A stretch of 39,248 nt of DNA from Chlamydiota bacterium (GTDB lineage Bacteria > Actinomycetota > Thermoleophilia > Solirubrobacterales > Solirubrobacteraceae): the NCBI GenBank assembly GCA_903970125.1, contig CAJCHW010000117.1, positions 1 to 39,248 on the forward strand, read 5' to 3'. The position numbers and the translations under genes are program-made. Below the pieces are notes generated by a model that had not been told where the DNA came from, made no database searches, and saw only the letters and a program-made list of their open reading frames with translations. This document shows, one piece after another, positions 1,718-17,842 of this stretch; position 1 is the stretch's first letter, and the number at the start of each line of letters is the position of its first letter.

Positions 1718-2704
1718 ATGAGCCCCAGCCTCAGGATGGCCAGGCACGAGGATCGGCTCAGCCCGATCGATCACCTCGAAGAGCTTCGCAGCCGGCTGAT
1801 CATCAGTCTCATCGCCGTCGCGGTCGCATTCGGCCTCTGCCTGTGGCAGAGCGGCACGCTCTTTCGCATCATCAATGACCCGCTCACCAAGCAGACCCAG
1901 CGCCAGGTTGCCAAGGGCAACGGGCCGCTGGGGCAGACGTGGCTTGCCCAGCAGGCGGTGCTGAAGCTCGCAGGCGATACCGAGGGACTGGCGAAGACCC
2001 TGAGCGCTGCCGGCAGCGGCCTTCCCCCGGCCACTCGGGCAGCGTTAGGAGCGGCGATTCCGCGCATCCAGCAGGACGTGGCCCGTGTTCCGCGCACGCC
2101 CCAGGGCGACAAACCGGTCACGCTGGGACTCGGCGAGCCGTTTTCGACCACCCTTCAGGTTGCGCTCTATTTCGGCCTGATCCTGGCGCTCCCGGTGATC
2201 CTGTTCGAGCTTTATGGATTCGTGATCCCGGCGCTGAAGCCGGAGGAGAAGCGCGCGGTGCTGCCGCTGCTGTGGGCCGTGCCGGTGCTGTTTGTCACAG
2301 GCGTCCTGTTCGGCTACTTCGTGGTGCTGCCCCCTGCCGTGCACTTCCTGCAGAACTTCAACCGCGAAGAGTTCAACGTGCTCGTGCAGGCCAGTCCGTA
2401 CTACCGCTTCGTCGCCGCGACCCTGATCGCCATCGGTCTGACGTTTGAGCTCCCCGTGGCCATCCTGGGCGCGGTTCGGGCCGGCGTCGTCACCACGCAA
2501 CGTCTGCGCAGTGGCCGTCGTTACGCAATCGCCGGGTGCGTCCTCATCGCCGCGATCTTGCCCGGCGAACTGATCACGATGGCGCTTGAGGCGGTGCCGC
2601 TGTACGTGCTGTACGAGCTCAGTCTGCTCGTTGCAACGATTGCTGAGCGCCGCCGGCCCATTGTGCACCCGGCCGACGCCACTGAGGCGCCGAGCAGCCC
2701 CTGA
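1718..2704 (+). CDS. tatC: Sec-independent protein translocase TatC with enlarged first periplasmic loop
   Basis: TatC is the membrane receptor of the twin-arginine pathway; it binds RR signal peptides and recruits TatA to move folded proteins. At 328 aa it is longer than E. coli TatC (258). The N-terminal HLEELRSRL motif is at 19-27, TM1 at about 28-45, DPL at 54-56, EPF at 140-142, and the further helices run to about 308. The stretch between DPL and EPF is about 85 residues, against about 16 in E. coli, so the first periplasmic loop carries a large insertion. The late motif that is usually TPxxDP reads LPGE at 281-284. ATG at 1718 is used, with GGTGA a few bases upstream; ATG at 1736 (residue 7, before the conserved motif) is an equally good start. 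tatA follows after 27 bases, so the two are probably co-transcribed. Confidence 0.95.
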   Translation: MSPSLRMARHEDRLSPIDHLEELRSRLIISLIAVAVAFGLCLWQSGTLFRIINDPLTKQTQRQVAKGNGPLGQTWLAQQAVLKLAGDTEGLAKTLSAAGSGLPPATRAALGAAIPRIQQDVARVPRTPQGDKPVTLGLGEPFSTTLQVALYFGLILALPVILFELYGFVIPALKPEEKRAVLPLLWAVPVLFVTGVLFGYFVVLPPAVHFLQNFNREEFNVLVQASPYYRFVAATLIAIGLTFELPVAILGAVRAGVVTTQRLRSGRRYAIAGCVLIAAILPGELITMALEAVPLYVLYELSLLVATIAERRRPIVHPADATEAPSSP

Positions 2705-2731
2705 GCCGGCGCGAGCTACAATTGGGGGTGC

Positions 2732-3004
2732 ATGCCAGGACTTGACAACCCGTGGCACATCGCCGTTGTGGTGGTTGTGCTGCTGCTTCTGTTCGGCGCC
2801 AAAAGACTGCCCGAAATCGGCAAGTCGCTGGGCAGCGGCATCCGCGAGTTCAAGCGTTCGGTGACCGGGCAGTCCGAGCCCGATCCCACAGCCGCCACCG
2901 CAGCGATCGCGCCTGCGCCTGCACCGATGCCGCAGCCGGCCACGATGGCCCAGGCTCAGCCCACCGAGACACCCGCGCCCTCAAGCTCTAGCCCCGCGCT
3001 CTAA
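2732..3004 (+). CDS. tatA: Twin-arginine translocase pore subunit TatA (first copy)
   Basis: TatA oligomerises to form the transport path for folded proteins in the cytoplasmic membrane. The 90-aa protein has the family layout: short N-terminus, one hydrophobic helix (about 8-21, with [12 protein letters not shown]), the FGAKRLPE hinge, an amphipathic helix with [13 protein letters not shown], then a flexible Pro/Ala tail. GGGGGTG just upstream of ATG 2732 serves as ribosome binding site. It lies 27 bases after tatC, in the usual pairing. The N-terminal half closely matches the second copy at 8541-8861, so they are paralogues. A TatB-like role cannot be excluded by sequence alone. Confidence 0.95.
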
Positions 3005-3127: not shown

Positions 3128-6100
3128 TCAGAAGTGCTTCTTCTTGGGTTTCGGTTTGGACTTCGCAGGCTTGATCAAGATGACCTGTGTCTTCAGGGCC
3201 GTACCGTCGGAGACCACCTGAACCTCGACCGCGAGCTTCTTGTGCAGTGCGAGCAGCTTCTTCGCGGTCGAGCTCAGGGCGACGCTGACGATCTTCTTTT
3301 CGCCGGCACTCAAGGTGGCGCTCAGCATTCCAACGACCACCGTGCGCTTTGTCAGCTTGCTTGAGTGCTTTGCGGCGACCGCGACGAGCCGTCCCTTGCT
3401 CAAGGTCTCGACGATCGTGACCTTGACGACCGCAGTCGCGCAGGTGCCGGAACCCGGCGAGCACTCAAGCGGCACGAGCACGGCCGATGCCGTGCTCGTG
3501 ATCGGGCCCGCCAGACTGAGCGTTGGCGTTGTTGTGGCACCCGTCGTTGCCGAGCTCGTCGTTGCCGAGCTCGTCGTTTCCGAGCTCGTCGTTTCCGAGC
3601 TCGTCGTACTCGTTGCCGTTGCCGTCGTGCTGGTCGAAGTCGTCGTCGTTGTCGTTGCCGTCAACGGCACGATCGCGGCGTTGATGCCTTCAGTCGGCAG
3701 CCCTTCTTTGACTGACACCTGGGTTGCGCCGAGCAGCGACGATGCGCCACTGAAGAACTGCCCGAAGAAGAATTCAGACGGCGGCACGAACTGCACCTCA
3801 TAGCTCCCGGGCACCAGAGTGGCGAGCCTGTATGTCCCGTCGGAAGCGGTTTCTCCGCTTTCGCTTTCGACGAGCGTCCCGCCCGAGGTATAGGCGTTCA
3901 CCTGGACTTCTGCGAGCGGCAGGCCGGTCAAAGCGTCGGTGACCGTTCCGGAGATGCTCCCCCCGACCACAAGCGCTCCGTTGATCTGTTCCGTTTTGTG
4001 TTCGGCCGTGACAGTTACCGACGTCGCCCCAACGAGCAGGGTGCCTTCCTTGTAGAACTGTGGCACATAGCTTCCACCGCCCGCGAACTCGACCTCGTAC
4101 TGTCCGGGGGCCAGGCCCGAGACCGTGTACTGCCCGTTTGCTGCTGTTTCGGCTTTGGCGACGCGCGCGTCACTGGAGTCGTAGACCGTCGCGAGCACGT
4201 TCGCCAGCGGTGCGTCACTTGAGGCGGTCGTGACGGTGCCGGAAATGCCTCCCCCGACCACGAGCGCAGCATTGACCCCAGTCTTCGTCGAGCCGGCTGT
4301 GACCGGCACCGCAGTCGCTTCGGCGAGCGTCGACTTGTCCTGGGAGTACTGCCTGAGATAGTCCCCGCTGGTGGGGAGAAACTCGACCTCGTATTCGCCG
4401 GTGGGCAGGCCCGAAACCGAGTAGTCACCATTTGCGCCGGTTTCCACCGACGAAACGTAGTCGTCGCCGGAGTCATACACCTTCACTTCGACGTGTTCGA
4501 TCGCCACATGGCTCGATGCATTGGTGACCGTGCCCGAAAGCGACCCGTAGGCGGAAACCATCGCCGCGTTGACCATTTCAGTCGTCGCACCCGCCGTGAT
4601 TGCGAGTTCGGTTGCTTCACCGTACGACGAGGCGTTGTCGTAGTACTGCGGCAGGTAGTCACCCGACGGCGCGGAGAATTCGACCTTGTCGTGGTCTGTC
4701 GCCAGGCCGGACAGCGTGTACGTCCCGCCGGCGGCGGTTTCGGTGGTGGCCACAGCATTGCGTTCGGTTTCGTAGGCCACGACGGCGATGTCCGCAAGCG
4801 CGGCGTGTGTATTTGCGTCGGTGACGGTGCCCTTGATCTTGCCTCCTTCGGCCAGCACCGCGTTGATGGCGGACGTCGTGTGGCCAGCCGTGACAGTCAC
4901 CGGCGCCGCTTCTGGCAACCGCGGCTTGTTGTTGTAGTACTGGGGGGCATAGTTGCCGGTGCTCGCAACGAACTGCACCTTGTAGCTGCCTTCGGTCAGC
5001 CCCGAGATCGTGTAGGACCCGTTTGCCACTGTGTGCGTGGAGGCCACCGATTCGCCGCCGGCGTTCAGTGCTTTCACTTCGACGTCTTCCAGGTGCGTGT
5101 TGGACGAGTTGGTGACCGTCCCGGAGATCGCGCCCGGCTTGACGAGCACGGCGCTTATTTCAGTGTCGGTTTTGCCCGGCTTGACAACGACTTCGGTCGC
5201 TTCGGTGTACGACGGGACGTTCTTGTAGTACTGCGGCAGGTAGCTCGCCGAGGGGACGAACTGGACCGCGTAGCTGCCCGCCGCGAGCGCTGGGATCGTG
5301 TAGGTGCCAGCCGAGCCCGTTTCGGCCGAGGTGACGAAGCTGTCTTCAAAGTTGAAGACCTTCACGACGACGCCTCCGAGCTTGGCGCTGGCCGCGCCTT
5401 CGACCGTGCCGGCGATTGCGCCGGGGGCGGCTAGCGTGGCGTTGACCCCGGCCTTGTCTGAGCCTGCCACGACGGCCACCGCGGTCGCTTCGGTGAGCAG
5501 CGCGGCACCGCTGTAGTACTGCGGGGCGTATTCGTGGTCCGGATAATGGCTTTCCAGCGGCGTGAACTGCACGTCGTAGCTGCCCTGCGGCAAACCTTCG
5601 ACGGTGTAGGTTCCGTCGGCGGCAGTGGTCGCCGAGGCGACGATTGAGTCGCTCGCGCTGTATACGGCCACTTCGATTTCCGTCGCACCCACGCTGCCAC
5701 CCGGCTTGTACACCGTGCCGGAGATCTCACCGCCGGCGGCCAGCGCCGCATTGATCGCGCTCTTGGTTGCGCCGGGCGCAACCGTCACCGTCGTTGCTTC
5801 GGCCAGTGTGGGCTTGTCGTTGTAGTACTGCGCAAGATAGTTGCCGGAGGTCGGCGAGAACCCGACCGCGTAGCTTCCGGCGGGCAGACCGCTAACCGTG
5901 TATGTCCCGCCCGAGCCGGTCTGCGCCGATGCGATTGGATCGCCGCCGGAGTCATACACCTCCACTTCCACTCCTTCCAACGCTTCGGCGTTGGACGCTC
6001 TGGTGACCTTCCCCGAGATCGCACCGCTCGCGTTGAGCGCGGCGTTGACGTTAGACGTCGTTTCGCCCCCGCTGACGGAAACCCCGGTGGCTTCGGTGGG

Positions 6101-8515
6101 CAAGGACGCTTCGTCGTAGAACTGTCGGGCGTCGCCGCCCGACAGAGCAACAAACTCGACCAGGTACCCGCCTGGTGCAAGACCTGAGACCGTGTAGGTG
6201 CCGTTTGAGCCGGTCTTCGCGGATCCGGCAAATTCGCCGCCGGGGGCATATACCTGCACTTCGACATCGGCCAGGCCTTCGTGGCTGGACGCCGAGGTGA
6301 CAGTTCCCGAGATCGCTCCGGTGCTCGTCAGCGCCGCGTTGACCCCCGATGTGACTGAGCCGGCGGTAACGGACACTCTGCTTGCCTGCGCCAGTGAAAA
6401 GGCGCCGTTGTAGTACTGCCCGAGGTAGCCGGCAGTCGGCACGAACTCGACGACGTAGCTGCCTGTCGCAAGGTCGGACACCGAGTAGGTGCCGTTGGCA
6501 GCCGTATCGGGGAACGCGAGCAGTTCGCCGTGGGAGCCGAATACCTCGACTTCGACGCCCTCCAGGTCAGCCGTCTTGGCAGCGTTGGTGACCTTGCCGG
6601 AGATTCCACCCGGGGCCTTCAGCGCCGTGTCGATTTCGGCCGTGTTTGAACCGGCCGCGACAGGCACAGGCGTCGCCGCATCCAATGACGCCCCACCCCC
6701 GTAGTACTGGGTGAGATACGCAGCGGACGGCGCCACGAATTCGATCTCGTAGCTGCCCGGCGCCAGGCCGGACACCTTGTAGTCGCCGTCGGATTCGCTG
6801 GTCGCCGAGGCGACGTGACCGACACCCGCCTCATACACCTTGACCACGACGTCAGGGACCGCGGCATGGTTCGCGGCGCTCGTGACTTCTCCGGACAGCG
6901 AACCGTCGGCGGTCGCCATCTCCGCGTTGATGGGGGACGTCGGCACACCGGCCGCAACCGGCACCTTCGTCGCTTCGGAGAATTTGGCCTGGTTGTCGTA
7001 GTACTGCGAGACGTATTCGCCGCTGGGTGAAACGAACTGCACCTCGTAGTTGCCTGCGGCCAGCCCGGGCACCGTGTAGGTACCGTCTGGTTCGCTCTGC
7101 GCCGAGGTTATGAGTTGTTCGGCTGAGTCATAGACGAGGACTTCGATGCCCCCGAGGTCGGCTGAGTTTGACGCAGCTTTGACCGTGCCCTTGATCGAAC
7201 CTTCGGCGGCAAGTGCCGCGTTTGCTTCAGCCGCCGCGCCGCCGGCGGTGACTTCCACCTTCGTCGCTTCAGCGAGCGTCGACTTGTCGTCGTAGTACTG
7301 CGGTGCGTAGCCGCCGCTGCTTGGGAGGAACTCGACCGTGTAGCTACCGGTTGCCAGACCCAGGACGGTGTACTTTCCTTCAGCGTTGGTCTGCCCCGAC
7401 GCGATCGGTTCATCGGCCGAGTTGAACACGGTGAGTGCGACTTCATCCAGTGGATCGGTGGTGGCGGCGCTCGTGACGGTGCCCGAGATCCGCCCGCCGG
7501 CCGTCAGCTTGGCTTCGACTTCCCTTTCGCCTTCACCGGCTTTGACAGTGATCTCGGTGGCTTCCGCGAGGGTGGACTTGTCCTTGTAGTACTGCTTGGA
7601 GTACCCGCCGGACGGCGTGAATTCCACCTTGTAGCTGCCGGGCGCGAGGCCTTCGACAACGTAGATTCCAGACGAGCTGGTCACCACCGGCGTCGGGTAG
7701 AAGTCCGGTTCGGTTATGTCATCGGCCTGAACCTCCACGTCTTCCAACGGTGCTTCGGTCAAGGCATCGGCGACTTCGCCCTCGATTATGGCGCTGAGGG
7801 GCAGCTTTGCGTCGATGCCGGTCGCCGGGTGGCTGGCGCTCACTGAAACGTGGGTGGCATCCGTGAAGGCGTAGGTGGCGCCGTAGAACTGGTAGGCGAG
7901 ACGCTTTTCCCCGAAGGCGGGCACGAACTCGACCACATAGCTGCCCGCAGACAGCCCCTGAATGGCGTAGGTCCCGAGGAGGGTTTGGCCGCTGGCCACG
8001 AGGTCGTGTGCGGTGTTATACACCTGCACTTCTACTTCCGGGGCCGCTTCTTCTTCGCCCCGGGGACCTTCAACCGTGCCCGTGATTTCCCCGCCGCTCG
8101 CGAGCTTGGCATTAACTTCCTTGGTCGTTTCACCAGATTTGACTTCCACAACGCTGGCAGCTTCCAGCGAGGCCTTGTCGTTGTAAAACTGCGTGAGGTA
8201 GTTACTCCCTTCGGGCGGCACAAATTCGACCTTGTAGCTGTATTCCGGGAGGCCGGAAACCGTGTAGGTGCCGTCGGCTGCCGTTTCTTCGTTGGTCACA
8301 TACTCGCCTTCGGCGGTGTAGATCTTGACTTCAGCTCCCTTGAGCGGTGCGTTGTTCGCGCTCGCCGTGACCGTGCCGGAGATTGCGCCTTCGGCCGCCT
8401 CGGCCACGCCAGGCGACGCCGCGCAGAGCGCTGCGACGAGGCACACGACACCGGCCGCCAGGGTCCGCACAGCGGCGGCAGGCGCCCGGCGGCGGGCGCT
8501 CGCAGTCCTACGCAT
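3128..8515 (-). CDS. Giant secreted protein with 16 carboxypeptidase-regulatory-like (Cna-B-like) repeats
   Basis: The protein has 1795 residues. A Sec-type signal peptide covers about 1-41 (basic start, LAAGVVCLVAALCAA core, cut near AEA). Then 16 tandem units of about 98 residues fill 43-1616. Each opens with GxISGTV, has VEVxVY, DGTYTVSGL, GSYxVEF and QYYxxK in the middle, and ends TVTAG...VNAAL. This is the pattern of carboxypeptidase-regulatory-like/SpaA-type beta-sandwich domains, which usually act as rigid stalks on surface proteins. A Thr/Ser linker follows (about 1617-1665), then a C-terminal beta domain with two cysteines (1685, 1692) that could form a disulfide, and a Lys-rich tail ending KKKHF. 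There is no LPXTG motif or closing membrane helix, so attachment may be by charge. It lies 25 bases after tatA2 and is last in the minus-strand block. Ligand unknown. Glutamate is mostly GAA (8 of 10 at the N-terminus), unlike the tatA2 next to it. Confidence 0.85.
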   Translation of the reverse strand: MRRTASARRRAPAAAVRTLAAGVVCLVAALCAASPGVAEAAEGAISGTVTASANNAPLKGAEVKIYTAEGEYVTNEETAADGTYTVSGLPEYSYKVEFVPPEGSNYLTQFYNDKASLEAASVVEVKSGETTKEVNAKLASGGEITGTVEGPRGEEEAAPEVEVQVYNTAHDLVASGQTLLGTYAIQGLSAGSYVVEFVPAFGEKRLAYQFYGATYAFTDATHVSVSASHPATGIDAKLPLSAIIEGEVADALTEAPLEDVEVQADDITEPDFYPTPVVTSSSGIYVVEGLAPGSYKVEFTPSGGYSKQYYKDKSTLAEATEITVKAGEGEREVEAKLTAGGRISGTVTSAATTDPLDEVALTVFNSADEPIASGQTNAEGKYTVLGLATGSYTVEFLPSSGGYAPQYYDDKSTLAEATKVEVTAGGAAAEANAALAAEGSIKGTVKAASNSADLGGIEVLVYDSAEQLITSAQSEPDGTYTVPGLAAGNYEVQFVSPSGEYVSQYYDNQAKFSEATKVPVAAGVPTSPINAEMATADGSLSGEVTSAANHAAVPDVVVKVYEAGVGHVASATSESDGDYKVSGLAPGSYEIEFVAPSAAYLTQYYGGGASLDAATPVPVAAGSNTAEIDTALKAPGGISGKVTNAAKTADLEGVEVEVFGSHGELLAFPDTAANGTYSVSDLATGSYVVEFVPTAGYLGQYYNGAFSLAQASRVSVTAGSVTSGVNAALTSTGAISGTVTSASSHEGLADVEVQVYAPGGEFAGSAKTGSNGTYTVSGLAPGGYLVEFVALSGGDARQFYDEASLPTEATGVSVSGGETTSNVNAALNASGAISGKVTRASNAEALEGVEVEVYDSGGDPIASAQTGSGGTYTVSGLPAGSYAVGFSPTSGNYLAQYYNDKPTLAEATTVTVAPGATKSAINAALAAGGEISGTVYKPGGSVGATEIEVAVYSASDSIVASATTAADGTYTVEGLPQGSYDVQFTPLESHYPDHEYAPQYYSGAALLTEATAVAVVAGSDKAGVNATLAAPGAIAGTVEGAASAKLGGVVVKVFNFEDSFVTSAETGSAGTYTIPALAAGSYAVQFVPSASYLPQYYKNVPSYTEATEVVVKPGKTDTEISAVLVKPGAISGTVTNSSNTHLEDVEVKALNAGGESVASTHTVANGSYTISGLTEGSYKVQFVASTGNYAPQYYNNKPRLPEAAPVTVTAGHTTSAINAVLAEGGKIKGTVTDANTHAALADIAVVAYETERNAVATTETAAGGTYTLSGLATDHDKVEFSAPSGDYLPQYYDNASSYGEATELAITAGATTEMVNAAMVSAYGSLSGTVTNASSHVAIEHVEVKVYDSGDDYVSSVETGANGDYSVSGLPTGEYEVEFLPTSGDYLRQYSQDKSTLAEATAVPVTAGSTKTGVNAALVVGGGISGTVTTASSDAPLANVLATVYDSSDARVAKAETAANGQYTVSGLAPGQYEVEFAGGGSYVPQFYKEGTLLVGATSVTVTAEHKTEQINGALVVGGSISGTVTDALTGLPLAEVQVNAYTSGGTLVESESGETASDGTYRLATLVPGSYEVQFVPPSEFFFGQFFSGASSLLGATQVSVKEGLPTEGINAAIVPLTATTTTTTSTSTTATATSTTSSETTSSETTSSATTSSATTGATTTPTLSLAGPITSTASAVLVPLECSPGSGTCATAVVKVTIVETLSKGRLVAVAAKHSSKLTKRTVVVGMLSATLSAGEKKIVSVALSSTAKKLLALHKKLAVEVQVVSDGTALKTQVILIKPAKSKPKPKKKHF
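3549..3608 (-). repeat. 15-bp tandem repeat, four copies, inside the Thr/Ser linker
   Basis: Units at 3549, 3564, 3579 and 3594, differing only at the first base (plus-strand GCCGAGCTCGTCGTT or TCCGAGCTCGTCGTT) and in the last base of unit 4. They encode five-residue units of the ETTSS/ATTSS type. Such a tract can gain or lose copies by slippage without shifting frame. Confidence 0.85.
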
Positions 8516-8540: not shown

Positions 8541-8861
8541 TCAGGTGCTCTGAGGATCAGCGACTGGCTGCCCCACGGGCTGCGCCTCGACAGCGGGCTG
8601 CGCCGGTGGTGCGGCGGCGGGAGCGGGCTGCCCCACCGGCTGAGCCTCGACAGCGGGCTGCGCAGGCGCGGCGGCGGGAGCGACTGGAGGCTTGTCCAGA
8701 GCAGCGGCGGCCGCTACGGGCGAATTGTTGAGAATTCCCTCCTTGAACTCTCTGATCCCGGTGCCGAGATCGCGTGCCATCTGCGGCACCCGCTTTGCGC
8801 CGAACAGAAGCAGCAGGATAAGAACTACAGCTGCGATATGGAGAGGGTTATCAAGGCCCAT
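8541..8861 (-). CDS. tatA: Second TatA-type translocase subunit, inside the giant-protein block
   Basis: The 106-aa protein has the TatA plan: MGLDNPLHIAAVV start, one membrane helix (about 7-21), the FGAKRVPQ hinge, amphipathic helix with GTGIREFKEG, and a Pro/Ala tail. The N-terminal half mirrors the copy at 2732-3004, including [14 protein letters not shown] and GIREFK. The tail holds a duplicated PAVEAQPVGQP segment, visible in DNA as two copies of about 57 bp at roughly 8567-8685. A good Shine-Dalgarno (TAGGAG) stands five bases before ATG 8861. It sits between the 1601-aa gene (122 bases upstream) and the giant repeat gene (25 bases downstream), and its glutamates are GAG, unlike both. 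The location suggests a TatA serving the Tat-signal protein of the block; a TatB-like role is possible. Confidence 0.92.
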   Translation of the reverse strand: MGLDNPLHIAAVVLILLLLFGAKRVPQMARDLGTGIREFKEGILNNSPVAAAAALDKPPVAPAAAPAQPAVEAQPVGQPAPAAAPPAQPAVEAQPVGQPVADPQST

Positions 8862-8935
8862 ATGGCTCCTAGCTCGTCGCGTGTGGAAGATCTCGGCTCA
8901 ACGCCGGGAGCGAATTTCCAGAGCTCGCCGGATGC

Positions 8936-8961
8936 GCGTGGTCTTGGTGCGTGGTCTTGGT
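8936..8961. repeat. 13-bp perfect tandem repeat upstream of the second tatA
   Basis: GCGTGGTCTTGGT occurs twice in a row (8936-8948, 8949-8961) in the 122-base gap between the 1601-aa gene and tatA2, about 75-100 bases before the tatA2 start. It could be a protein-binding direct repeat or chance slippage. Confidence 0.6.
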
Positions 8962-8983
8962 GGTCAGTCATGCTCAGTCCCAA

Positions 8984-11900
8984 TCATCCCGGAAGCGGGA
9001 TGTGACACACGAAGGGTCGCCTGAGAGCTGTGTTGATCTGCGCCGGCAGCGGTTCATCCGCGGGGTAGTCGATCTCGCTGATACGTAGGCGCAGAGGATT
9101 TCCGCTGCTCGGCAGCTTGATCGGCGTGTAGCTGGTCCATTCGACTTCGTTCTGGATCTGGCCGGGTGCGCGCACGGAGATGTCCGCGCTGAGCGTGGTG
9201 GTGTAGCCGTCCACCGTGGACCAGCCGAAGTCTGCGCCGAAGGTGCTTTCGAGCTGTTGCTGGACCTCGACGACCATCGTCGAAGTCGTCTGAACGCCTT
9301 CCTTGTTTGAGTTCGGGTGTTCGGCGTCGGGGTTATTGCGGTCAACCCACTCGCCTGGCCCGCGCCATCCGACGTACCCGGGACCACGGACGGTTACATA
9401 GAGTTTGTTGGTCCCGACGACTTCGACGCTGCGGTCGGCGACGGGCTGAGCAAACGTGACGAGTGAGACCGGCGAGACCGAACCCACGAACGGCAAGGCG
9501 GAGGTTTCGGTGAAGGGCTGGTAGCGCACCAGTGACAGACGCAGGAAATAACCGGGCGGCAGCAGCGGCTTGCCCGCCTCGGGGGAGTTCTTGAGCGTGA
9601 TGTCAGCGAACCACAGACCGCTTTCGGGGTCGTACTGTGGCTTGTAGGGCCATACCTCATAGGTATCCTCGGCGTAGGGTTCCTCCACCAGGTTGACGAC
9701 CGACTTGCTCAGTTCCTGCTGCGTTTCGGTGGCCGGCACCTTGGTGTTCGTCACAAACGTCAGCTGGGACTGGCTGACATCGTCGCCCACCAGGTTGGCC
9801 ACGCTGATCGGGTCAAGGCCGAGCGTCGTGACGAGATCGGCTCGAATCACCGATGGCAGCCCCGAGCCGGGGGCGTCGACGGCCACGACCACACCCAGCA
9901 GCTCGTCGGCACCGGTGGCGAACCAGGGCCGCTCCAAGTAGACGCGCAGCGTGTTGCCTTTGCGGTCGTAGCGGTAGCCCGGGCCGGAATTGGTTGCGCC
10001 TTGGCGAGACAGGCTCCAAGCCGGCGCAACCTTCACCACCTTCACCGGCGGCGGCGTCGTGCTCGACAGGACATGACGTTCCTGCGTGGGCCCGATGACG
10101 GTGTCGGTGGGCACAAAGGTCACGGCCAGTTCGGTCTTTTCCAATTCGACCGTTTCTCCAAGCTCTGTGGGTTCTCCAACCGGTGGCCGCTTTACGGTCG
10201 CGCCGCTCTTGAGCGTGATCGTGCCGCCCGGCCCGTCGACTTCATAGAGACTCGAGGGCACCGTGACGGCGGCGAGCGCGCGACCATGCGGCGCTTCGCC
10301 GACCGGTACTTCAGGCACCACGACCTTCAGGCTGTTCGGGCTGATCCCGCGCGCGTCGATGATCGTCGCCGTCGTGCTCAGCTTCACGAGGATCGTGGAC
10401 GCGAAAAACTCGCCGAAGCGGCTTGCGGCCGTGGCGGTGTACTTGACCAGGTGGTGCTTGGTGTCTCCAATGCGCTGTTCGGCGTAGAACTTGGGCCCGA
10501 TTTCGTCAAAGGGCCCTTCAAAGCCGATGAACCCAAACGGGCTCTTTTCATCGGCAGGAGGCAGCGCAGTCACGGGCCCGGCCGGCACCACGGGCGGATA
10601 GAGATTTTCGACGTGGAGGAGCAGGCCGCCCTGCGAGAAAGTCCTGGGGTTTTGCGCGAACGCTCTGGGCACCTTGCCATTGTCTTCCGGTTCTGCGGGG
10701 TTGTACGCCCAGTCTTCCGGTTCTGCGGGGTTGTCAACCGGGTCTGTCCAGGTCGCTTCGTAGGTGACCGTGGCGGTGCTCGGCGGGTCAACCACATAGT
10801 GCTTGTCTTCGATTGTCACAGCGGTGCTGTTGGGCAGGCGGCTGAACGCGCAGGACGCCGAGAAGACCGGTCGGCGCTGTGGTTTGAGCACCGCGTAGAC
10901 CACGGTCAAAGTCTCCGCGGGGGTCAGCTGGTACTGGGACCCTCCAAGCGCCCGAGCCTTGGCCGCCGCGGGATTGGGCGGTGGTGGCGGGGGACCAAAC
11001 CCGAAGTGTGACGACGTCAGCGTGGCCTTTTCGATCCACGGCCAAAGACCGAATGACCCCAGCTCTCCGAGTTCATCCGCTCTTTCCGTAGCTGCAAACG
11101 CGCTGCTGATTTCGAGCTGGTACACCGACCCTGGAACCACGGTCATCGTCAGCACCCTCGCCTTTTCCCGTTCGCCGTCGTGAAAAGACCAGACCGGGTC
11201 AGCTAGCCAGGGCCAGTGGTCTGTGGGATCCTTTTCGTCGACCGAGTCAAACCCCTCGTAGGGTTCGTGCGCCGGCTTGACCACCAGCAGCTTGGCGACG
11301 AGCGCAGGCCAGGTGCCCTCCCATAGGTCAACAAAGGGCTCAAGGCCGCCGGGTACCGGGTCATATCCCAGGGCCATCGGCTGCTTCGGGGCGCCGGTGC
11401 CGTTGATCGCCAGTCCCACCGCCGGCGGGTCCACGAGCCATTTGGCCTGTACTTCTGGCACCCCTTCGTGAGTGTTGTAAGGCAGCACGAGATTTGGCAC
11501 GCCGGCACTGCCGGGCTCGTTCTTCATACCCGTAATGTCTGTCAGCGAGCCGTCGTTGTATTCGGCGATGAGCTTCTCGGCAGCCAACGTCGGAACGCCT
11601 TCTTCGTCGAACGCCCCGTGCTCCTCGGCCAGCAGCTCGTGCACCTTGGGAGGAAACAGCCAGCGCGCGTTTGGCTCCGGGAGGAGCAGGCCGCCGTCAT
11701 CGCGGATGACCATGGTCAGCGCTCCCTCGCCTACGGTCAGCGCTGCCGTGGGAACAATGAACGGTGGTCTCACAGGTTCCCATCGATAGTGGGTCGCCGC
11801 GAGTACCTCCGGCGAAACGCCCGTAGAGGGTGTGAACTGTGGCAGCGACCAACCGGTCAGATCCACTGTGCGCGCGCGATAGAAGTAGGTATTGCCGAAA

Positions 11901-13789
11901 CGCAGCGGCGGCAGCCCCGTCTGGCCGAGTTCTTCGTTTTGGTTTCCAGGCTGCGTGATCACGGTTCCGGCCGGGGGAATCGAGAACTTGGCGGAGACCT
12001 GGGGGTTGATGCTTCCTTCCTTTTCGTGCGTTGGCACCGGGTTCGTGTCTTCGTCTTCTAGGGAGACCGTGCCGTCGTTCATGATGTGGCGGCCGGGGCG
12101 CGGAGCGGAGAGGCTCCACCCGTCCCAGCGGGCGATCGACTCGTGGATCCACAACTGGGCCGGTGAGTCACCCTTGTTTTCGACCGGCTGATGGGTCACG
12201 CCGGGGCTCACGAAGCCCTCAATCGGCACTTCCTCGTTGAGTTCTTCGGGGTGTGTCGTACCGAACACGTATTTGCCGAACCTCCAGTGCAACGAGTCCC
12301 AGCTCAGCGGGGTGCCCGCCTGGTCAATAAATCCGGGGGGCGTGCCCACATCGAGGCGCCAGCCGCGCGTGAGATGCTCGGAGTAGACCAGCGGCGAGGG
12401 CGGCTTGGAGTTGGGATTGGCTTCGATCCATGCCTTTACTTCTTCTTGGAACTTCGTCTGAAGCCAGGCCAGTGCTGCGAGGTTAAGCGAGCTGCCTTCG
12501 GTGACGGGGGTGGGAGTGGTTGGGATTTCTTCACCCCATCCGTGCCAGAGCAACGACGGCCCCGCCGACCTCAGACTCGGCAGCCTCAGGTCGACCGCGA
12601 CGCGGGACCCCCTGTGCGCTTCGAAGGTGGTTTCCAGGCCCGCAAGTGTGGTCGTCAGAGCCTGGCACGCGCCGTCGATGTCGATGTCGAGGATCGCGAA
12701 TTGAGGCATGGTCCCTTCGTACTTTTTGCCGAGAAGCAGGAACCCGGCGCCGGCTGAGCTTGAGTCGTTGTTGTAGTCAGAGCCGTAGGGCCTGGGGAGA
12801 AAGGTCGCGGACACGCCCACCGTTCTCGGCGTCACGTCGTCGCTCTGCTTCACTTCGGTTTCATTGCTCCCAGCCGACGAGGTCCACTCAGGCTTGACGC
12901 TGAGCAGAAAGTAGGGGTGACTACTGCCCTGTCCAGGCACGTTGGTCTGCCGGGGCAAGCCCGCGAGGCTGACCGTAAACGTGAATGCCAATCCGAAGTA
13001 CTGCAGCAGCTCCGGGTAGGCCGAAAGCGACGAGACCGCTTGGTGGAAGTCGATGACCGGCGCTTCAGTCGGCGGCTTGACACGTTCATGTTTGGCGACT
13101 TCGTGAAACTTCAGGACGCGATAGAACTGTTGAGGTCGCTCCGTTAGGTTCGAGTACGCCTCATACTGCGCGCCCGACGTCTCGACCGGCATCAGGTAAC
13201 CGGGCTCGATCCCACCGATGCCGCCGATGCTGCCGACACCTCGATAGAGGTCGGGACGGGCCATGCCTCTGACGAGATGGACCTCCTTCTCGCCCGGTTC
13301 GGGCTTGAAGTTCAACGGAGTGGCCGGGGCGGCATTCAGGGGGCCATAAAGACCTTCGACGTAACTGTGCACGGGCGCCGCGTGAAAGGTCTTGATCGGG
13401 ATCCCGTTGAAGTTCTCGATCGCGAACGGATCCACGCGCGTCGATTTGCCTTCTTCGGGGAACATCGTCGTCCAGTACTGCGGCTTGAGTTCCGTGAGGT
13501 CCGGTTCGACTTCGACTTCGATTCCGCCTTCTTCGTGAAGCTCGGCGTTGACAGGCACGATCTTCACCTTGAACTTGATCGGCCCCGACCGCGAGTTCTT
13601 CATCGTTTCAGGCCAGTTGATCCAATCGGTATAGGTGGACAGGTGCGGTGGCGTGCCGCCGCCGGGGCTTGCCGAGAGCTGCGGCGTCACGAACACCGAC
13701 ACGCGCGCCTGTTGTTCGTTTGATCCCGGGACAAAGCCCTGTGGCAACGCGGTCCAGATGACCGCCTGATCGTAAGTTTCTGTGCCCAT
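8984..13789 (-). CDS. 1601-aa protein of unknown function, Tat-linked block
   Basis: I cannot assign a function or a named domain. The product lacks a signal peptide and membrane helices. It looks mostly beta, rich in Pro, Gly, Thr and Val, with only about three cysteines. Visible landmarks: an N-terminal part with RVSVFVTPQL; HESIARWDGWSL and RARTVDLTGWSLP in the middle; RWLFPPKVHELLAEEHGAFD; a six-proline run near residue 935; a ten-residue tandem repeat (NPAEPED...) near 1018-1037; and LRVYLERPWF with LLGVVV further on. The phrases recall large uncharacterised bacterial proteins of similar size, but I know no role for them. ATG 13789 lies 16 bases after the 909-aa gene, so the two are co-transcribed. 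Glutamate is mainly GAA (6 of 7 in one N-terminal segment). Enzyme, scaffold or surface protein are all open. Confidence 0.75.
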   Translation of the reverse strand: MGTETYDQAVIWTALPQGFVPGSNEQQARVSVFVTPQLSASPGGGTPPHLSTYTDWINWPETMKNSRSGPIKFKVKIVPVNAELHEEGGIEVEVEPDLTELKPQYWTTMFPEEGKSTRVDPFAIENFNGIPIKTFHAAPVHSYVEGLYGPLNAAPATPLNFKPEPGEKEVHLVRGMARPDLYRGVGSIGGIGGIEPGYLMPVETSGAQYEAYSNLTERPQQFYRVLKFHEVAKHERVKPPTEAPVIDFHQAVSSLSAYPELLQYFGLAFTFTVSLAGLPRQTNVPGQGSSHPYFLLSVKPEWTSSAGSNETEVKQSDDVTPRTVGVSATFLPRPYGSDYNNDSSSAGAGFLLLGKKYEGTMPQFAILDIDIDGACQALTTTLAGLETTFEAHRGSRVAVDLRLPSLRSAGPSLLWHGWGEEIPTTPTPVTEGSSLNLAALAWLQTKFQEEVKAWIEANPNSKPPSPLVYSEHLTRGWRLDVGTPPGFIDQAGTPLSWDSLHWRFGKYVFGTTHPEELNEEVPIEGFVSPGVTHQPVENKGDSPAQLWIHESIARWDGWSLSAPRPGRHIMNDGTVSLEDEDTNPVPTHEKEGSINPQVSAKFSIPPAGTVITQPGNQNEELGQTGLPPLRFGNTYFYRARTVDLTGWSLPQFTPSTGVSPEVLAATHYRWEPVRPPFIVPTAALTVGEGALTMVIRDDGGLLLPEPNARWLFPPKVHELLAEEHGAFDEEGVPTLAAEKLIAEYNDGSLTDITGMKNEPGSAGVPNLVLPYNTHEGVPEVQAKWLVDPPAVGLAINGTGAPKQPMALGYDPVPGGLEPFVDLWEGTWPALVAKLLVVKPAHEPYEGFDSVDEKDPTDHWPWLADPVWSFHDGEREKARVLTMTVVPGSVYQLEISSAFAATERADELGELGSFGLWPWIEKATLTSSHFGFGPPPPPPNPAAAKARALGGSQYQLTPAETLTVVYAVLKPQRRPVFSASCAFSRLPNSTAVTIEDKHYVVDPPSTATVTYEATWTDPVDNPAEPEDWAYNPAEPEDNGKVPRAFAQNPRTFSQGGLLLHVENLYPPVVPAGPVTALPPADEKSPFGFIGFEGPFDEIGPKFYAEQRIGDTKHHLVKYTATAASRFGEFFASTILVKLSTTATIIDARGISPNSLKVVVPEVPVGEAPHGRALAAVTVPSSLYEVDGPGGTITLKSGATVKRPPVGEPTELGETVELEKTELAVTFVPTDTVIGPTQERHVLSSTTPPPVKVVKVAPAWSLSRQGATNSGPGYRYDRKGNTLRVYLERPWFATGADELLGVVVAVDAPGSGLPSVIRADLVTTLGLDPISVANLVGDDVSQSQLTFVTNTKVPATETQQELSKSVVNLVEEPYAEDTYEVWPYKPQYDPESGLWFADITLKNSPEAGKPLLPPGYFLRLSLVRYQPFTETSALPFVGSVSPVSLVTFAQPVADRSVEVVGTNKLYVTVRGPGYVGWRGPGEWVDRNNPDAEHPNSNKEGVQTTSTMVVEVQQQLESTFGADFGWSTVDGYTTTLSADISVRAPGQIQNEVEWTSYTPIKLPSSGNPLRLRISEIDYPADEPLPAQINTALRRPFVCHIPLPG
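8985..9002 (-). other. Perfect hairpin over the stop codon of the 1601-aa gene
   Basis: CATCCCG (8985-8991) pairs with CGGGATG (8996-9002) around a four-base loop. It includes the last codons and the stop (8984-8986) of the 1601-aa gene. No T-run follows on the minus strand, so an RNA-processing or partial-terminator role is as likely as true termination. Confidence 0.5.
10682..10734 (-). repeat. 23-bp direct repeat, period 30, inside the 1601-aa gene
   Basis: The same 23 bases, beginning GTCTTCCGGTTCTGCG, occur at 10682-10704 and 10712-10734. Period 30 keeps frame and yields the repeated peptide NPAEPED. It is a recent in-frame duplication. Confidence 0.85.
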
Positions 13790-13805
13790 ATCCGGTCTCT
13801 ATGCC

Positions 13806-16535
13806 TCAGGAAATCGCTCGTGGTGGCGCATTGAAGGCACCAACGTAGGTTTTCCAGTCTTCTTCATCGATGAGGTCTTCCCATTTGAGCTTCGGTTCTG
13901 GGAATTCGGCATCAGGCCGCGCAGCCGCGCTGGCGGCCGCCAGCGCCTTGTCGGTTGCCCGGCGCACGGAGGAGCTGGATTTGGAACCTCCTGCAAATTC
14001 TTTGTGCATCGTGATTGACACCGACGCGCCGAAGCCGAACACGGAGAAGTGCGCACGCAAGGTGGCCGTGCCTTCGGCCCTCCCCGGTGGCGTTTCGTAT
14101 ATCAGCGAGAGCACCAGTTCGGCGCTGATCGAGATGATCCCGAGCACTTCCAGCTGGCCCGTGACGCGGACGAAGCCTTCCAAGAAAACGCTGTGCTTTT
14201 CCACTTCGTACTTGATGTAGATACCGGCGACCAGGCTCAGGCTGCCGCTGGCGACGACGATGTCGAAGCCGAAGTGCCCCTCGAATTCGAACTGAAGTTC
14301 GACCGACTGAACGCCGCCGAAGCCGACGGAGAGTGCCACGAAGCCGCCGCCGCCGAACATCACAACCGTCAAGGTGAACGGGTTCTCCTTGCTCGCGAAC
14401 CCGAACGTGGCGATCGCAGTGCCGGAGATGAACGGGATGTCGACGCTGCCGTTGAAACCCAGACCTGACAGGCTGAGGATTCCGACTTCGATGGGCGGCA
14501 ACGTGATCGACGTGCCGATCTTGATGTCGGTCGGTTCGACGTGGACCGAGAGACCTTCGCCGCCAAGCGATTCAAGGAATTCCTCAAGCGTCTGGACGAA
14601 TTCGAGTGCGCCCTCAAAGTTGACTTCGTTGAGGTTCACGTGGATTGACGGCTTGCCGCCACTGACTGAGGTGAAGGTGAACGACTCGAAGTGAAGCCTC
14701 AAAAAGTAAGTTTCGGAGTTCTCTCCGAACAGGCAGATCGCGAACGGGTCGATCGACCCTTCGACGTTGTAGGTCGGTGGCGCACCGTCCAAGCCCTTGA
14801 CGACTTCGGTGACGAGGGTCAGATACCCGGGACTGCCATCGGGCACAAACACGGGGTATTGTTCTTCGGGTCCCCAGCTCTTGAGGGCCGTGTGCAGCTT
14901 GTACTTGACCGTCGGCGGCCCCGAGGATGGGTCCATCAGCGAGCTGATCGTTGGTGTCTGAAACCCTTCTTCGCCGTCGCCGTCGGGGCGCGCGAGCCAC
15001 GAACCGGGCACTGCCGCGGCTTCACTGACAGCGCCCTGAAGGATGTCCACCAGCTTCAGGCCACCGAGCAGTTCCGACAGCGCGGCCGCTCCGGCTTCCT
15101 CGGCTTCCTTGAAGTATTCCTTTAGTTTCGCGCCACCTTCCTTGGCATAGTTTTCGAGACTTTCGAGCACCCCGCCGGACCCCTTTTTCAGGCCACCGCC
15201 CACCGCGCCGATGGCCGCGGAGAGCCCGGCGATCGTGGCGTTCGGGGTCCCGAGCGCTCCGACCGACGAGGAGGGCAGGTTCAGGGCGACGTTGTTGACC
15301 GTTTCCGCATAGACACTCCCGGGATTTTCTGTAGCGGCCGTGCCGTCCGGTCTCGCGCTCCCGGCCGCGGCGGCCTTGCGTGCGCCGGGCCCGTAGTGTG
15401 AGGTTCCCAGCGCCACATAATGTGGGTAGTACCGGAACTCAACGCCCCCCACCGCCGGGCGCTTTCCAGGCGGTGGCCCTTGTTCGTCAGAAAAGTCCTC
15501 GCCCCGGAGCGCGTCGGCGGCGTGCAGGCGGACCCTCGCGCTGCTGATGGTCGGATAGAAGTTCGGCTGAGCCGCGTTGATAAGTGCCGCCTCCCCCGGG
15601 CCTGAGGGCTCGGCCGAGCTGTTTTCGTTGCTCGTGCTCGTCGCTGCCCCGAGCACGAGCAGCAGCGTCGGATGGGTCGTGTTGCCCTTGGTGGTCTTTC
15701 CGGGGACCTCCGGCGCAAAACGCAAAGGCGCTCCCCCCGGCCGCGACCAGGTCTGATGGGAGCCGCTTTCCCGCACCGCTTTGTACATCTCGACAAGTTC
15801 TTCTGTCCATGATCCTGAGCCCGTCTTGTACTCTTGCCCTGATCCGGGAACGTAGACCAGCGGCATCTCAAAGGCGATGTCGTTGCCGGCGAGATCGGTG
15901 GCCACGAACCGCCAGAGAAAGTCAACTCTTGAGCTTTCCGGTTCATAGGTTGGCCAGAACGCCTTCTTTTCTTCCTGTGAAGATCCGATGTACTTGTCCG
16001 TGTAGATTTCCGGCGTCACGAGCGTGACCATGCGCACCGAGGAAAACGGCCAGTCGCTCGCTCCCCCGCTGGCCTCCGCAAAAGGCTGACCCGTGGCACC
16101 GTAGGCTTTGACAGGCTGCGCGACCTTGATGAATTTCCGCACCTGCAGATAGGCGAGCGGCGCCGAGCCGGAGTCGTGGGCGCCGTTTGTAGGTTCGGGT
16201 GCGATGACCCGCTGGAAAATTTCGGTCAGGGTCGCGCGGTGACCGAGCGGGAACAGATAGCCGCGCTTCACAACCACCGAATGCACCGTGCGACCGTAGG
16301 AACCGATGTCCAGCCATGACACGAGTTCGGGCTTCGGCTTCAGCTTGGTCGTCGACCAGTCGCCGTACAACTCGGCGTTGGCCCCAAGCGCGCTCAGTTC
16401 GAGCTTGTCGACTTCGATAAACGCTTCTTTTGAAAGCTCGACCAGGTTTTGCCGGCCGAGCTTGTTAAGGGTCGTGAACTGAAACTTGTCGTTGGGACCG
16501 TCTGGTTCGAACTTGGTCTTCTGCTCTTCGCTCAC
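13806..16535 (-). CDS. 909-aa protein of unknown function, Tat-linked block
   Basis: No named family recognised and no signal peptide. The first 400 residues look beta-rich; near residue 200 there is DFLWRFVATDLAGNDIAFE, a phrase similar in style to RARTVDLTGW in the next protein. Residues about 430-508 are Gly/Ala-rich and probably helical (GGGLKKGSGG, KLKEYFKEAEEAG). From about 640 to 850 there are long alternating hydrophobic strands with glycine clusters (FGGGGFVALSVGFGG) and repeated acidic turns, as in beta-barrel or beta-helical sheets. One cysteine. It begins with GTG at 16535, overlapping the stop of the Tat-signal gene by four bases (GTGA), a sign of translational coupling and perhaps of a joint complex. 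Glutamate is GAA in five of five C-terminal positions counted. Location in the cell is unknown. Confidence 0.75.
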   Translation of the reverse strand: MSEEQKTKFEPDGPNDKFQFTTLNKLGRQNLVELSKEAFIEVDKLELSALGANAELYGDWSTTKLKPKPELVSWLDIGSYGRTVHSVVVKRGYLFPLGHRATLTEIFQRVIAPEPTNGAHDSGSAPLAYLQVRKFIKVAQPVKAYGATGQPFAEASGGASDWPFSSVRMVTLVTPEIYTDKYIGSSQEEKKAFWPTYEPESSRVDFLWRFVATDLAGNDIAFEMPLVYVPGSGQEYKTGSGSWTEELVEMYKAVRESGSHQTWSRPGGAPLRFAPEVPGKTTKGNTTHPTLLLVLGAATSTSNENSSAEPSGPGEAALINAAQPNFYPTISSARVRLHAADALRGEDFSDEQGPPPGKRPAVGGVEFRYYPHYVALGTSHYGPGARKAAAAGSARPDGTAATENPGSVYAETVNNVALNLPSSSVGALGTPNATIAGLSAAIGAVGGGLKKGSGGVLESLENYAKEGGAKLKEYFKEAEEAGAAALSELLGGLKLVDILQGAVSEAAAVPGSWLARPDGDGEEGFQTPTISSLMDPSSGPPTVKYKLHTALKSWGPEEQYPVFVPDGSPGYLTLVTEVVKGLDGAPPTYNVEGSIDPFAICLFGENSETYFLRLHFESFTFTSVSGGKPSIHVNLNEVNFEGALEFVQTLEEFLESLGGEGLSVHVEPTDIKIGTSITLPPIEVGILSLSGLGFNGSVDIPFISGTAIATFGFASKENPFTLTVVMFGGGGFVALSVGFGGVQSVELQFEFEGHFGFDIVVASGSLSLVAGIYIKYEVEKHSVFLEGFVRVTGQLEVLGIISISAELVLSLIYETPPGRAEGTATLRAHFSVFGFGASVSITMHKEFAGGSKSSSSVRRATDKALAAASAAARPDAEFPEPKLKWEDLIDEEDWKTYVGAFNAPPRAIS

Positions 16536-17842
16536 GACCGCCGATCACCCCGCTGGTGGCGACGCCTGCGAGCCATCCGCCTGCGCTTGGCCCCGGACTT
16601 CTTGCTTCTCGTGACCAAAGCCTTGCTTCTCGTGACCGCTGCACCCGTGCCCGTCGTCGGCGAAGTGCCGCTGACGTTCGTGGGCGAAGTCGGAGCGCCC
16701 GTTTGGATCCCGGCCGTACTGGGCTTGGCGCGGCGGCGGATCTGGGGAGGCGGAAACGGTTCGTAGTTGATTTCGGTCCACGGGGTAGCGCCCTCTGTGC
16801 CGACGCCTGATTCATAATCGCGCGCGTAGATTGCCGCGACTTGGGGTTTGCGTGGGGGTGGTGGTGGTGACGAGTACTCGACGCCGCGGTATTGGAACTC
16901 GAGGCGATCGCGGTCGTAGGTGGTGACTTCCAGCGCCGTCGTCCAGAGGTCGCTGATCCCCGTGGTCGGGGAGCCGGCCTGATGTTCGCCGACCAGAGGT
17001 TCCGTGCGCCCGTTGAACTTGGTCGTGAACCCGAAGAAGGCCCCGCCGATGTCAACGGTCGGCGCGAGAAAAACCGCGTACGGGTACTCGATTGAAGTCA
17101 CGAATTCGCCCGGCTTGGCGGGGGGGCTTGAATCCGGTCTCGCGTCGGGGAGGCGCGCCGTGTTGCCCGCGGTACGGTCAAACGGCTCTCTGAAAATCCC
17201 CACGCCGCCCTCCACGCCGCCTTCATCGACCTGCGCCACCGCGGGAACCAGCAGCGTCCACGAGCTCCAGTCGAGCAGGTCCGCGGCGGTCATCGTCGTA
17301 AAGTCGACCTGCTGGCCGGTGTTGAGCGTGAAACAGAGCCTGCTTGGGCCCGAGACCGCCGACATCACCGGCGGCGGATCGACAACCCAGTCTGGTTCGT
17401 GACCGTCGGCGGCATACGTATAGATGGCCTCGCCGATCGCCTGCGGAGGCAGCTGGACGACGATCACGTTGCTGCTTGACGCCGGCACCAGCGAGGTCAC
17501 CGAGCCGGGACCGTAGTTCAGCAGGAAGCCGTGGAAGGTGATGTCGAGCAGGGCCAGGTCGGCCTCGCGCTCGACCGAGAATGTGAAGGTCTGCGGGACC
17601 TGCTGCCTTTGGATCGGGATGCCACCGACATCCCTGGCGAGCGCCGTGAGCAGGCGGGCGGGTCCGTCGGGATACCCGGCGAGGACCGCGGCAAGCGACG
17701 TTGCGGCGCCGCCGGTGAGCATCTGCCTGCGCGTGATCCCATAGCGGCTGCGCGCCTCGCCGCCATCGGCCTTCCCAGACCCAGCCAGTCGGTCCGGGAC
17801 CGGTCCCTCGGGCCCTGGCGCCCCTGAGACCTCGTCGGCCAT
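16532..17842 (-). CDS. Tat-signal protein of unknown function, first gene of the block
   Basis: The protein has 436 residues. A long N-terminus carries a twin-arginine motif, ITRRQML (RR at 38-39), followed by a mildly hydrophobic stretch (about 43-57, TGGAATSLAAVLAGY), typical of Tat export or a Tat anchor. The exported part has TFTFSVERE, then a beta-rich body with SIEYPYAVFLAP and DLWTTALEV, a run of six prolines, and a Thr/Ser-rich linker. It ends in an extremely basic tail (RSKKSGAKRRRMARRRRHQR) that could bind an anionic wall or nucleic acid. No catalytic motif is visible. It is the only member of the first three genes with an export signal. It is preceded by a likely promoter and overlaps the next gene by four bases. 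Glutamate codons are GAG near the start and mixed later. Confidence 0.82.
   Translation of the reverse strand: MADEVSGAPGPEGPVPDRLAGSGKADGGEARSRYGITRRQMLTGGAATSLAAVLAGYPDGPARLLTALARDVGGIPIQRQQVPQTFTFSVEREADLALLDITFHGFLLNYGPGSVTSLVPASSSNVIVVQLPPQAIGEAIYTYAADGHEPDWVVDPPPVMSAVSGPSRLCFTLNTGQQVDFTTMTAADLLDWSSWTLLVPAVAQVDEGGVEGGVGIFREPFDRTAGNTARLPDARPDSSPPAKPGEFVTSIEYPYAVFLAPTVDIGGAFFGFTTKFNGRTEPLVGEHQAGSPTTGISDLWTTALEVTTYDRDRLEFQYRGVEYSSPPPPPRKPQVAAIYARDYESGVGTEGATPWTEINYEPFPPPQIRRRAKPSTAGIQTGAPTSPTNVSGTSPTTGTGAAVTRSKALVTRSKKSGAKRRRMARRRRHQRGDRRS
16601..16637 (-). repeat. 16-bp direct repeat in the basic tail of the Tat-signal protein
   Basis: CTTGCTTCTCGTGACC occurs at 16601-16616 and 16622-16637 (period 21 = 7 codons), giving the doubled VTRSK peptide. 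Confidence 0.85.

What the first reader, a model, noticed from the sequence alone, without database searches (positions are those of the whole stretch)
3128..8515. Sixteen tandem Cna-B-like domains in a 1795-aa secreted protein
Units of about 98 residues keep spacing but differ in sequence, so they are old duplications. A slippage-prone 15-bp tract lies in the stalk linker. A rod of 16 such domains could extend far from the cell.
Basis: partly seen in the sequence, partly recalled or inferred. Interest (0 to 1): 0.6.

Follow-up and report, generated by a model that had tools for sequence, protein, structure and literature searches.

The report
Sixteen-domain bacterial surface stalk protein
A soil- or bog-type actinobacterium encodes a long exported protein built from sixteen copies of one small beta-sandwich domain without the covalent cross-links of pilus proteins, ending in a tail domain that many unrelated exported proteins of the same bacterial order share and that may hold them at the cell surface.

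Summary
The gene is on the minus strand. It encodes 1795 aa: a signal peptide, 16 tandem units of 96-103 aa, a Thr/Ser linker with the 15-bp tract, and a separate C-terminal domain. AlphaFold2 gives three consecutive units as beta-sandwiches (pLDDT 93). The closest solved structures are SdrD B domains and Gram-positive pilins. All 16 units match Pfam CarboxypepD_reg; none matches Cna_B. Eleven of 16 have no lysine in the first strand and none has a cysteine, so they are not isopeptide- or disulfide-locked. The copies are old but lineage-specific: 15 of 16 cluster together, silent sites nearly randomised. Sixteen is the highest count found among 232 genomes of the order (next 10, 8, 7). It occurs 15 times in this genome and in 31 of 41 genomes sampled across the order, is rare elsewhere in the phylum, and in all 29 independently found copies lies 0-28 residues from the stop, mostly on signal-peptide-bearing proteins. 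Best reading: a Sec-exported fibrillar stalk held at the surface by this module. The stalk is well supported; the anchoring is inference.

The parts
8393..8515 (-). Sec-type signal peptide, residues 1-41 (MRRTASARRR...AAGVVCLVAALCAASPGVAEAA)
   Evidence: Sequence; most hydrophobic 19-residue stretch of the protein lies here
3662..8392 (-). Array of 16 tandem CarboxypepD_reg-like units, residues 42-1618; no adhesive domain before it
   Evidence: AF2 of units 7-9 pLDDT 93.2
5735..6613 (-). Units 7-9, the stretch folded by AlphaFold2
3512..3661 (-). Thr/Ser-rich linker, residues 1619-1668
3542..3607 (.). 15-bp tandem tract, 4.4 copies (TTSSE/TTSSA)
3131..3511 (-). C-terminal module (CTD), residues 1669-1795, two Cys (1685, 1692), basic tail; no Pfam/NCBIfam family
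8541..8861 (-). tatA-like gene 25 bp upstream, probably same transcript
8984..13789 (-). P0002, 1601 aa, no Pfam, upstream gene of the same-strand run
13806..16535 (-). P0003, 909 aa, no Pfam
16532..17842 (-). P0004, 436 aa, Tat-type signal (ITRRQML); first gene of the same-strand run

Best explanation
A Sec-exported fibrillar stalk protein. After signal-peptide removal, 16 prealbumin-fold (CarboxypepD_reg) domains form a semi-rigid rod held together by ordinary folding (no isopeptide, no disulfide in the units). A short Thr/Ser linker follows, then a C-terminal disulfide-capable beta-sandwich module (CTD) that retains the protein at the cell envelope in place of a sortase motif or membrane helix. 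The N-terminal end of the rod points outward. Having no separate adhesive domain, it acts through the units themselves or as a spacer or matrix fibre. Shown: anatomy, predicted fold of the units, absence of isopeptide residues, recurrence and C-terminal position of the CTD. Inferred: surface retention by the CTD, rod orientation, adhesion or matrix role, a length of the order of 50-70 nm (assuming 3.5-4.5 nm per domain).
For: 16 units with fixed spacing; confident repeated beta-sandwich whose best PDB matches are surface stalks: B. anthracis TIE, SdrD, BcpA, GBS52. Signal peptide, no other hydrophobic stretch, no LPXTG-like motif near the C terminus. CTD: 15 copies in this genome, 31/41 genomes of the order, but only 1 genome outside the class among 149 sampled in the phylum. 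All 29 non-seed copies lie 0-28 aa from the stop, mostly on signal-peptide-bearing proteins, after stretches enriched in T/S/P (0.35 vs 0.25, p=0.0003). CTD presence is independent of sortase: 8 of 41 genomes have the CTD and no sortase.
Against: No adhesive domain and no experimentally known anchor. The CTD model is only moderate (pLDDT 70, two-row alignment) and looks like a generic Fn3-type domain, which could be structural only. No ligand, localisation or expression data. This genome does have a sortase. No neighbour proves a function; the same-strand upstream genes are of unknown role.
Confidence: 0.5

Rival explanations
1. The protein is released, not anchored: a secreted extracellular-matrix or sugar-binding repeat protein whose C-terminal domain is just one more stabilising beta-sandwich.
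For: No sortase motif or membrane helix; CTD resembles Fn3-like domains of secreted enzymes; some array proteins of the order end in other domains or basic tails instead of the CTD.
Against: A merely structural domain would not be expected to sit at the very C terminus in 29 of 29 independent copies on unrelated proteins.
Confidence: 0.33
2. True Cna-B-type isopeptide-locked stalk, as in Gram-positive pilins.
For: Same fold; conserved Asn (12/16, plus 2 Asp) in the last strand and Glu/Gln (15/16) in a middle strand.
Against: No Lys in the first strand in 11/16 units, and no alignment column with Lys in more than 6/16; no Cna_B profile match.
Confidence: 0.03
3. The gene is part of a Tat-export unit with its upstream neighbours (P0004-P0003-P0002-tatA) and works only together with them, for example as surface receptor or scaffold of that exported complex.
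For: Same strand, 25-bp gap to tatA, P0004 carries a Tat motif and the genes overlap or nearly so.
Against: Relatives of P0002, P0003 and possibly P0004 sit together in G098 without tatA or a stalk gene, and G098's own 10-unit stalk gene lies 1.4 Mb away. P0003 occurs in 4/232 genomes, array proteins in 36/232.
Confidence: 0.12

Closest known systems
CarboxypepD_reg, Pfam PF13620 (transthyretin/prealbumin-like clan)
   Same: All 16 units match (best 1.4e-13); unit 9 alone 41.5 bits against a cut-off of 32.3.
   Different: Usually one or a few copies (my knowledge); here 16 in tandem with a conserved Y..Q(Y/F)Y extension, making units of ~98 aa against the 82-position model.
Staphylococcal SdrD/SdrG B domains (SdrD_B, PF17210)
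   Same: Best sequence-profile match among solved structures (10ps, 7e-16) and second protein in the fold search; tandem stalk role.
   Different: No N2/N3 ligand-binding region, no Ser-Asp repeats, no LPXTG, no conserved Asp/Asn calcium loop. Sdr B domains owe their strength to Ca2+ (PMC6232131).
Cna_B / SpaA pilin and adhesin domains
   Same: Same beta-sandwich fold; SpaA profile matches 13/16 units.
   Different: Lys of the Lys-Asn bond absent in at least 11/16; no Cna_B match. In CnaB-like folds the bond joins first and last strands with a Glu catalyst (PMC12617251).
Fibrillar adhesins (PMC8286594)
   Same: Long repeated stalk on an exported protein. That survey found no known anchor in about half of its proteins and suggested undiscovered anchors.
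   Different: No known adhesive domain, so it would fall outside that survey's definition.
T9SS C-terminal domains of Bacteroidota (Por_Secre_tail), from memory for mechanism
   Same: A beta-sandwich module confined to the extreme C terminus of many unrelated exported proteins.
   Different: No sequence relation: the CTD does not match that profile; different phylum and envelope type.

Membership tests
CarboxypepD_reg (PF13620) | Profile match over the curated cut-off | tested here: met
   16/16 units at E<=0.01, unit 9 41.5 vs 32.3 bits
CarboxypepD_reg (PF13620) | Prealbumin-like beta-sandwich | tested here: met
   AF2 pLDDT 93.2, all-beta; Foldseek to SdrD B domains and CnaB-type pilins
Cna_B (PF05738) | Profile match | tested here: not met
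   Absent from lists at E<=0.01 for the whole protein and for each of the 16 units
Isopeptide-bearing CnaB-like domain | Lys in first strand, Asn/Asp in last strand, catalytic Glu | tested here: not met
   No Lys in first strand in 11/16 units; Asn/Asp in last strand 14/16
Sdr/MSCRAMM adhesin | N2/N3 ligand-binding region, SD repeats, LPXTG | tested here: not met
   Array starts right after the signal peptide; no LPXTG-like motif near the C terminus
Sdr/MSCRAMM adhesin | Calcium loops of the B domain | tested here: inconclusive
   No conserved run of Asp/Asn in the unit alignment; metal binding not testable here
Sortase-anchored surface protein | C-terminal LPXTG-like motif, hydrophobic segment, basic tail | tested here: not met
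   Only LAITA inside unit 13 (residue 1304); best hydrophobic stretch outside the signal scores 1.34; a sortase gene exists in the genome
Fibrillar adhesin | Tandem stalk domains | tested here: met
   16 units
Fibrillar adhesin | Recognised adhesive domain | tested here: not met
   No other Pfam domain in the protein
Known C-terminal sorting or anchor domain (Pfam, NCBIfam) | Profile match of the CTD | tested here: not met
   12 members: one fn3_5 hit at 9e-4 and two CsgH-type hits at 3e-3, none for the window copy

The most novel reading that the evidence does not exclude
The CTD is an undescribed, sortase-independent C-terminal sorting or wall-retention domain of one actinobacterial order, used by many different exported proteins; the 16-domain rod is its longest client seen here.
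Probability: 0.35. Interest if true: 0.7.

Novelty: new variant of a known kind. Interest (0 to 1): 0.42.

Why it matters
The stalk itself extends a known kind: a long rod made of CarboxypepD_reg domains without covalent locking. The more useful point is the C-terminal module. A published survey found no known anchor for nearly half of fibrillar-adhesin-like proteins (PMC8286594). A domain that is common across one order, rare elsewhere in its phylum, always at the extreme C terminus, attached to many unrelated exported proteins and independent of sortase is a concrete candidate for such an anchor, and its profile gives a list of proteins to test.

Tried and rejected
Search of relatives with the whole 1795-aa protein failed three times; a 3-unit piece worked. 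The first 4-unit alignment slipped register because rows overlapped and was replaced by disjoint 3-unit rows. The first CTD alignment had one out-of-frame row, redone. Considered and rejected: isopeptide stalk, sortase anchoring, and obligatory partnership with the upstream Tat-linked genes. Structure prediction was limited to window and scan-fetched sequences, so the CTD had only two rows. Paper searches on the order's surface proteins and C-terminal domains found nothing relevant. No tool named the class; Thermoleophilia/Solirubrobacterales is my inference from the make-up and the groups around it.

Full report
Observation. The window holds a 1795-aa ORF at 3128-8515 on the minus strand. It begins with a signal peptide (residues 1-41), continues with 16 units of 96-103 residues up to residue 1618, a Thr/Ser linker (1619-1668) containing the 15-bp tract at 3542-3607, and a final ~125 residues with two cysteines and a Lys-rich tail. 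A profile built from the units scores each copy at 94-127 bits, against at most 7.9 bits for 500 shuffles. Apart from two cysteines in the signal peptide, the only cysteines are the two in the C-terminal domain; there is no tryptophan.

What the units are. Every unit matches CarboxypepD_reg; SdrD_B matches all 16, SpaA 13, Cna_B none. AlphaFold2 on units 7-9, aligned with other window triples and rows from two fetched loci, gives mean pLDDT 93.2 and pTM 0.77, all beta. Foldseek puts B. anthracis TIE, SdrD, BcpA and GBS52 on top, all proteins of Gram-positive surfaces; the sequence profile also finds SdrD first.

No covalent locking. CnaB-type isopeptide bonds join a Lys of the first strand to an Asn/Asp of the last strand with a Glu catalyst (PMC12617251). 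Here the last-strand Asn/Asp is common (14/16), but 11 of 16 units have no Lys anywhere in the first strand, and no column holds Lys in more than 6 of 16. The units also lack Cys. Two paralogues in the same genome carry several Cys per unit (L002, L003), so the family appears to use disulfides in some members and nothing covalent in this one.

History. Pairwise identity among the units does not fall off clearly with distance along the array. DNA identity is 56%, and silent positions are close to random expectation (0.54 vs 0.475). In a tree of 114 units from the order, 15 of the 16 window units form one group (94/82), the sixteenth falling just outside (few columns, weak inner forks). This is an old, lineage-internal expansion. 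Among 232 genomes of the order 36 have matches; in the array proteins fetched, the counts are 16 (here), 10, 8, 7 and lower (not every match was fetched, and weak units can be missed).

The C-terminal module. The last domain has no Pfam family and no useful NCBIfam match. A 12-row profile finds 15 copies in this genome and copies in 31 of 41 genomes drawn across the order, but in only 8 of 149 genomes drawn from the phylum, 7 of them from the same class. The seeds were chosen as C-terminal tails, so only the 29 non-seed copies that I fetched test position: all lie 0-28 residues from the stop, 28 of them within 10. Their proteins are otherwise unrelated and most show signal peptides (23 of 32 by a strict rule, more by eye). 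The 40 residues before the module are richer in T/S/P than the rest (0.35 vs 0.25, p=0.0003). One internal copy exists in G156 (L069), between an array and a protease-like segment that ends in a second copy, which looks like a fusion of two genes. Presence of the module is not tied to sortase: 8 of 41 genomes have it without sortase, 8 have sortase without it, 23 have both. The AF2 model is moderate (pLDDT 70) and resembles Fn3-type domains of secreted enzymes.

Surroundings. A tatA-like gene ends 25 bp upstream on the same strand; further up are P0002 (1601 aa), P0003 (909 aa) and P0004 (436 aa), the last with a Tat motif ITRRQML. tatC (1718-2704, +) and a second tatA (about 2732-3004, +) run toward the stalk gene. 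Relatives of P0002, P0003 and, weakly, P0004 lie together in G098 without tatA or a stalk gene, so the stalk gene is probably a neighbour rather than an obligatory part.

Mechanism. Best-supported: a Sec-exported rod of 16 beta-sandwiches, linker, and a C-terminal module that keeps it at the envelope. The rod and export are well supported; retention rests on the position and distribution of the module; adhesion or matrix role is inference, since no adhesive domain is present. The length (50-70 nm) assumes 3.5-4.5 nm per domain and was not measured.

Verdict. Observation confirmed; interpretation partly supported (CarboxypepD_reg, not Cna-B; no isopeptides). The stalk is a long member of a known kind; the C-terminal module is the new part and deserves a direct test.

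Noticed in passing
window 8541-17842 (-): Same-strand run P0004 (Tat motif) - P0003 - P0002 - tatA upstream of the stalk gene. P0002-P0004 have no Pfam match; P0003 relatives in only 4 of 232 genomes of the order, in G098 beside relatives of P0002 and perhaps P0004.
   Followed up: partly
window 1718-3004 (+): tatC followed by a second tatA, converging on the stalk gene; in two relatives (L092, L094) tatA precedes tatC instead.
   Followed up: partly
L002 448-2976 (-) and L003 817-3180 (-): Paralogues in the same genome with CarboxypepD_reg units carrying several Cys each, followed by an Ig-like domain and the same C-terminal module.
   Followed up: partly
L069 2115-6578 (-): 1488-aa protein of a congener: 7 units, Ig-like domain, CTD, trypsin-like protease segment (by eye), Ig-like domain, second CTD; looks like a fusion of two exported proteins.
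   Followed up: no
L087, L096, L097 (array proteins, C termini): Array proteins of family f2 end not in the CTD but in a short basic Cys-pair tail (KC+KGF.K+.VKGK.RCVK...), another possible recurrent C-terminal motif.
   Followed up: no
L099 5296-12415 (+): Microbacterium fluvii has three adjacent genes with CarboxypepD_reg arrays, each ending in repeats of a different domain.
   Followed up: no
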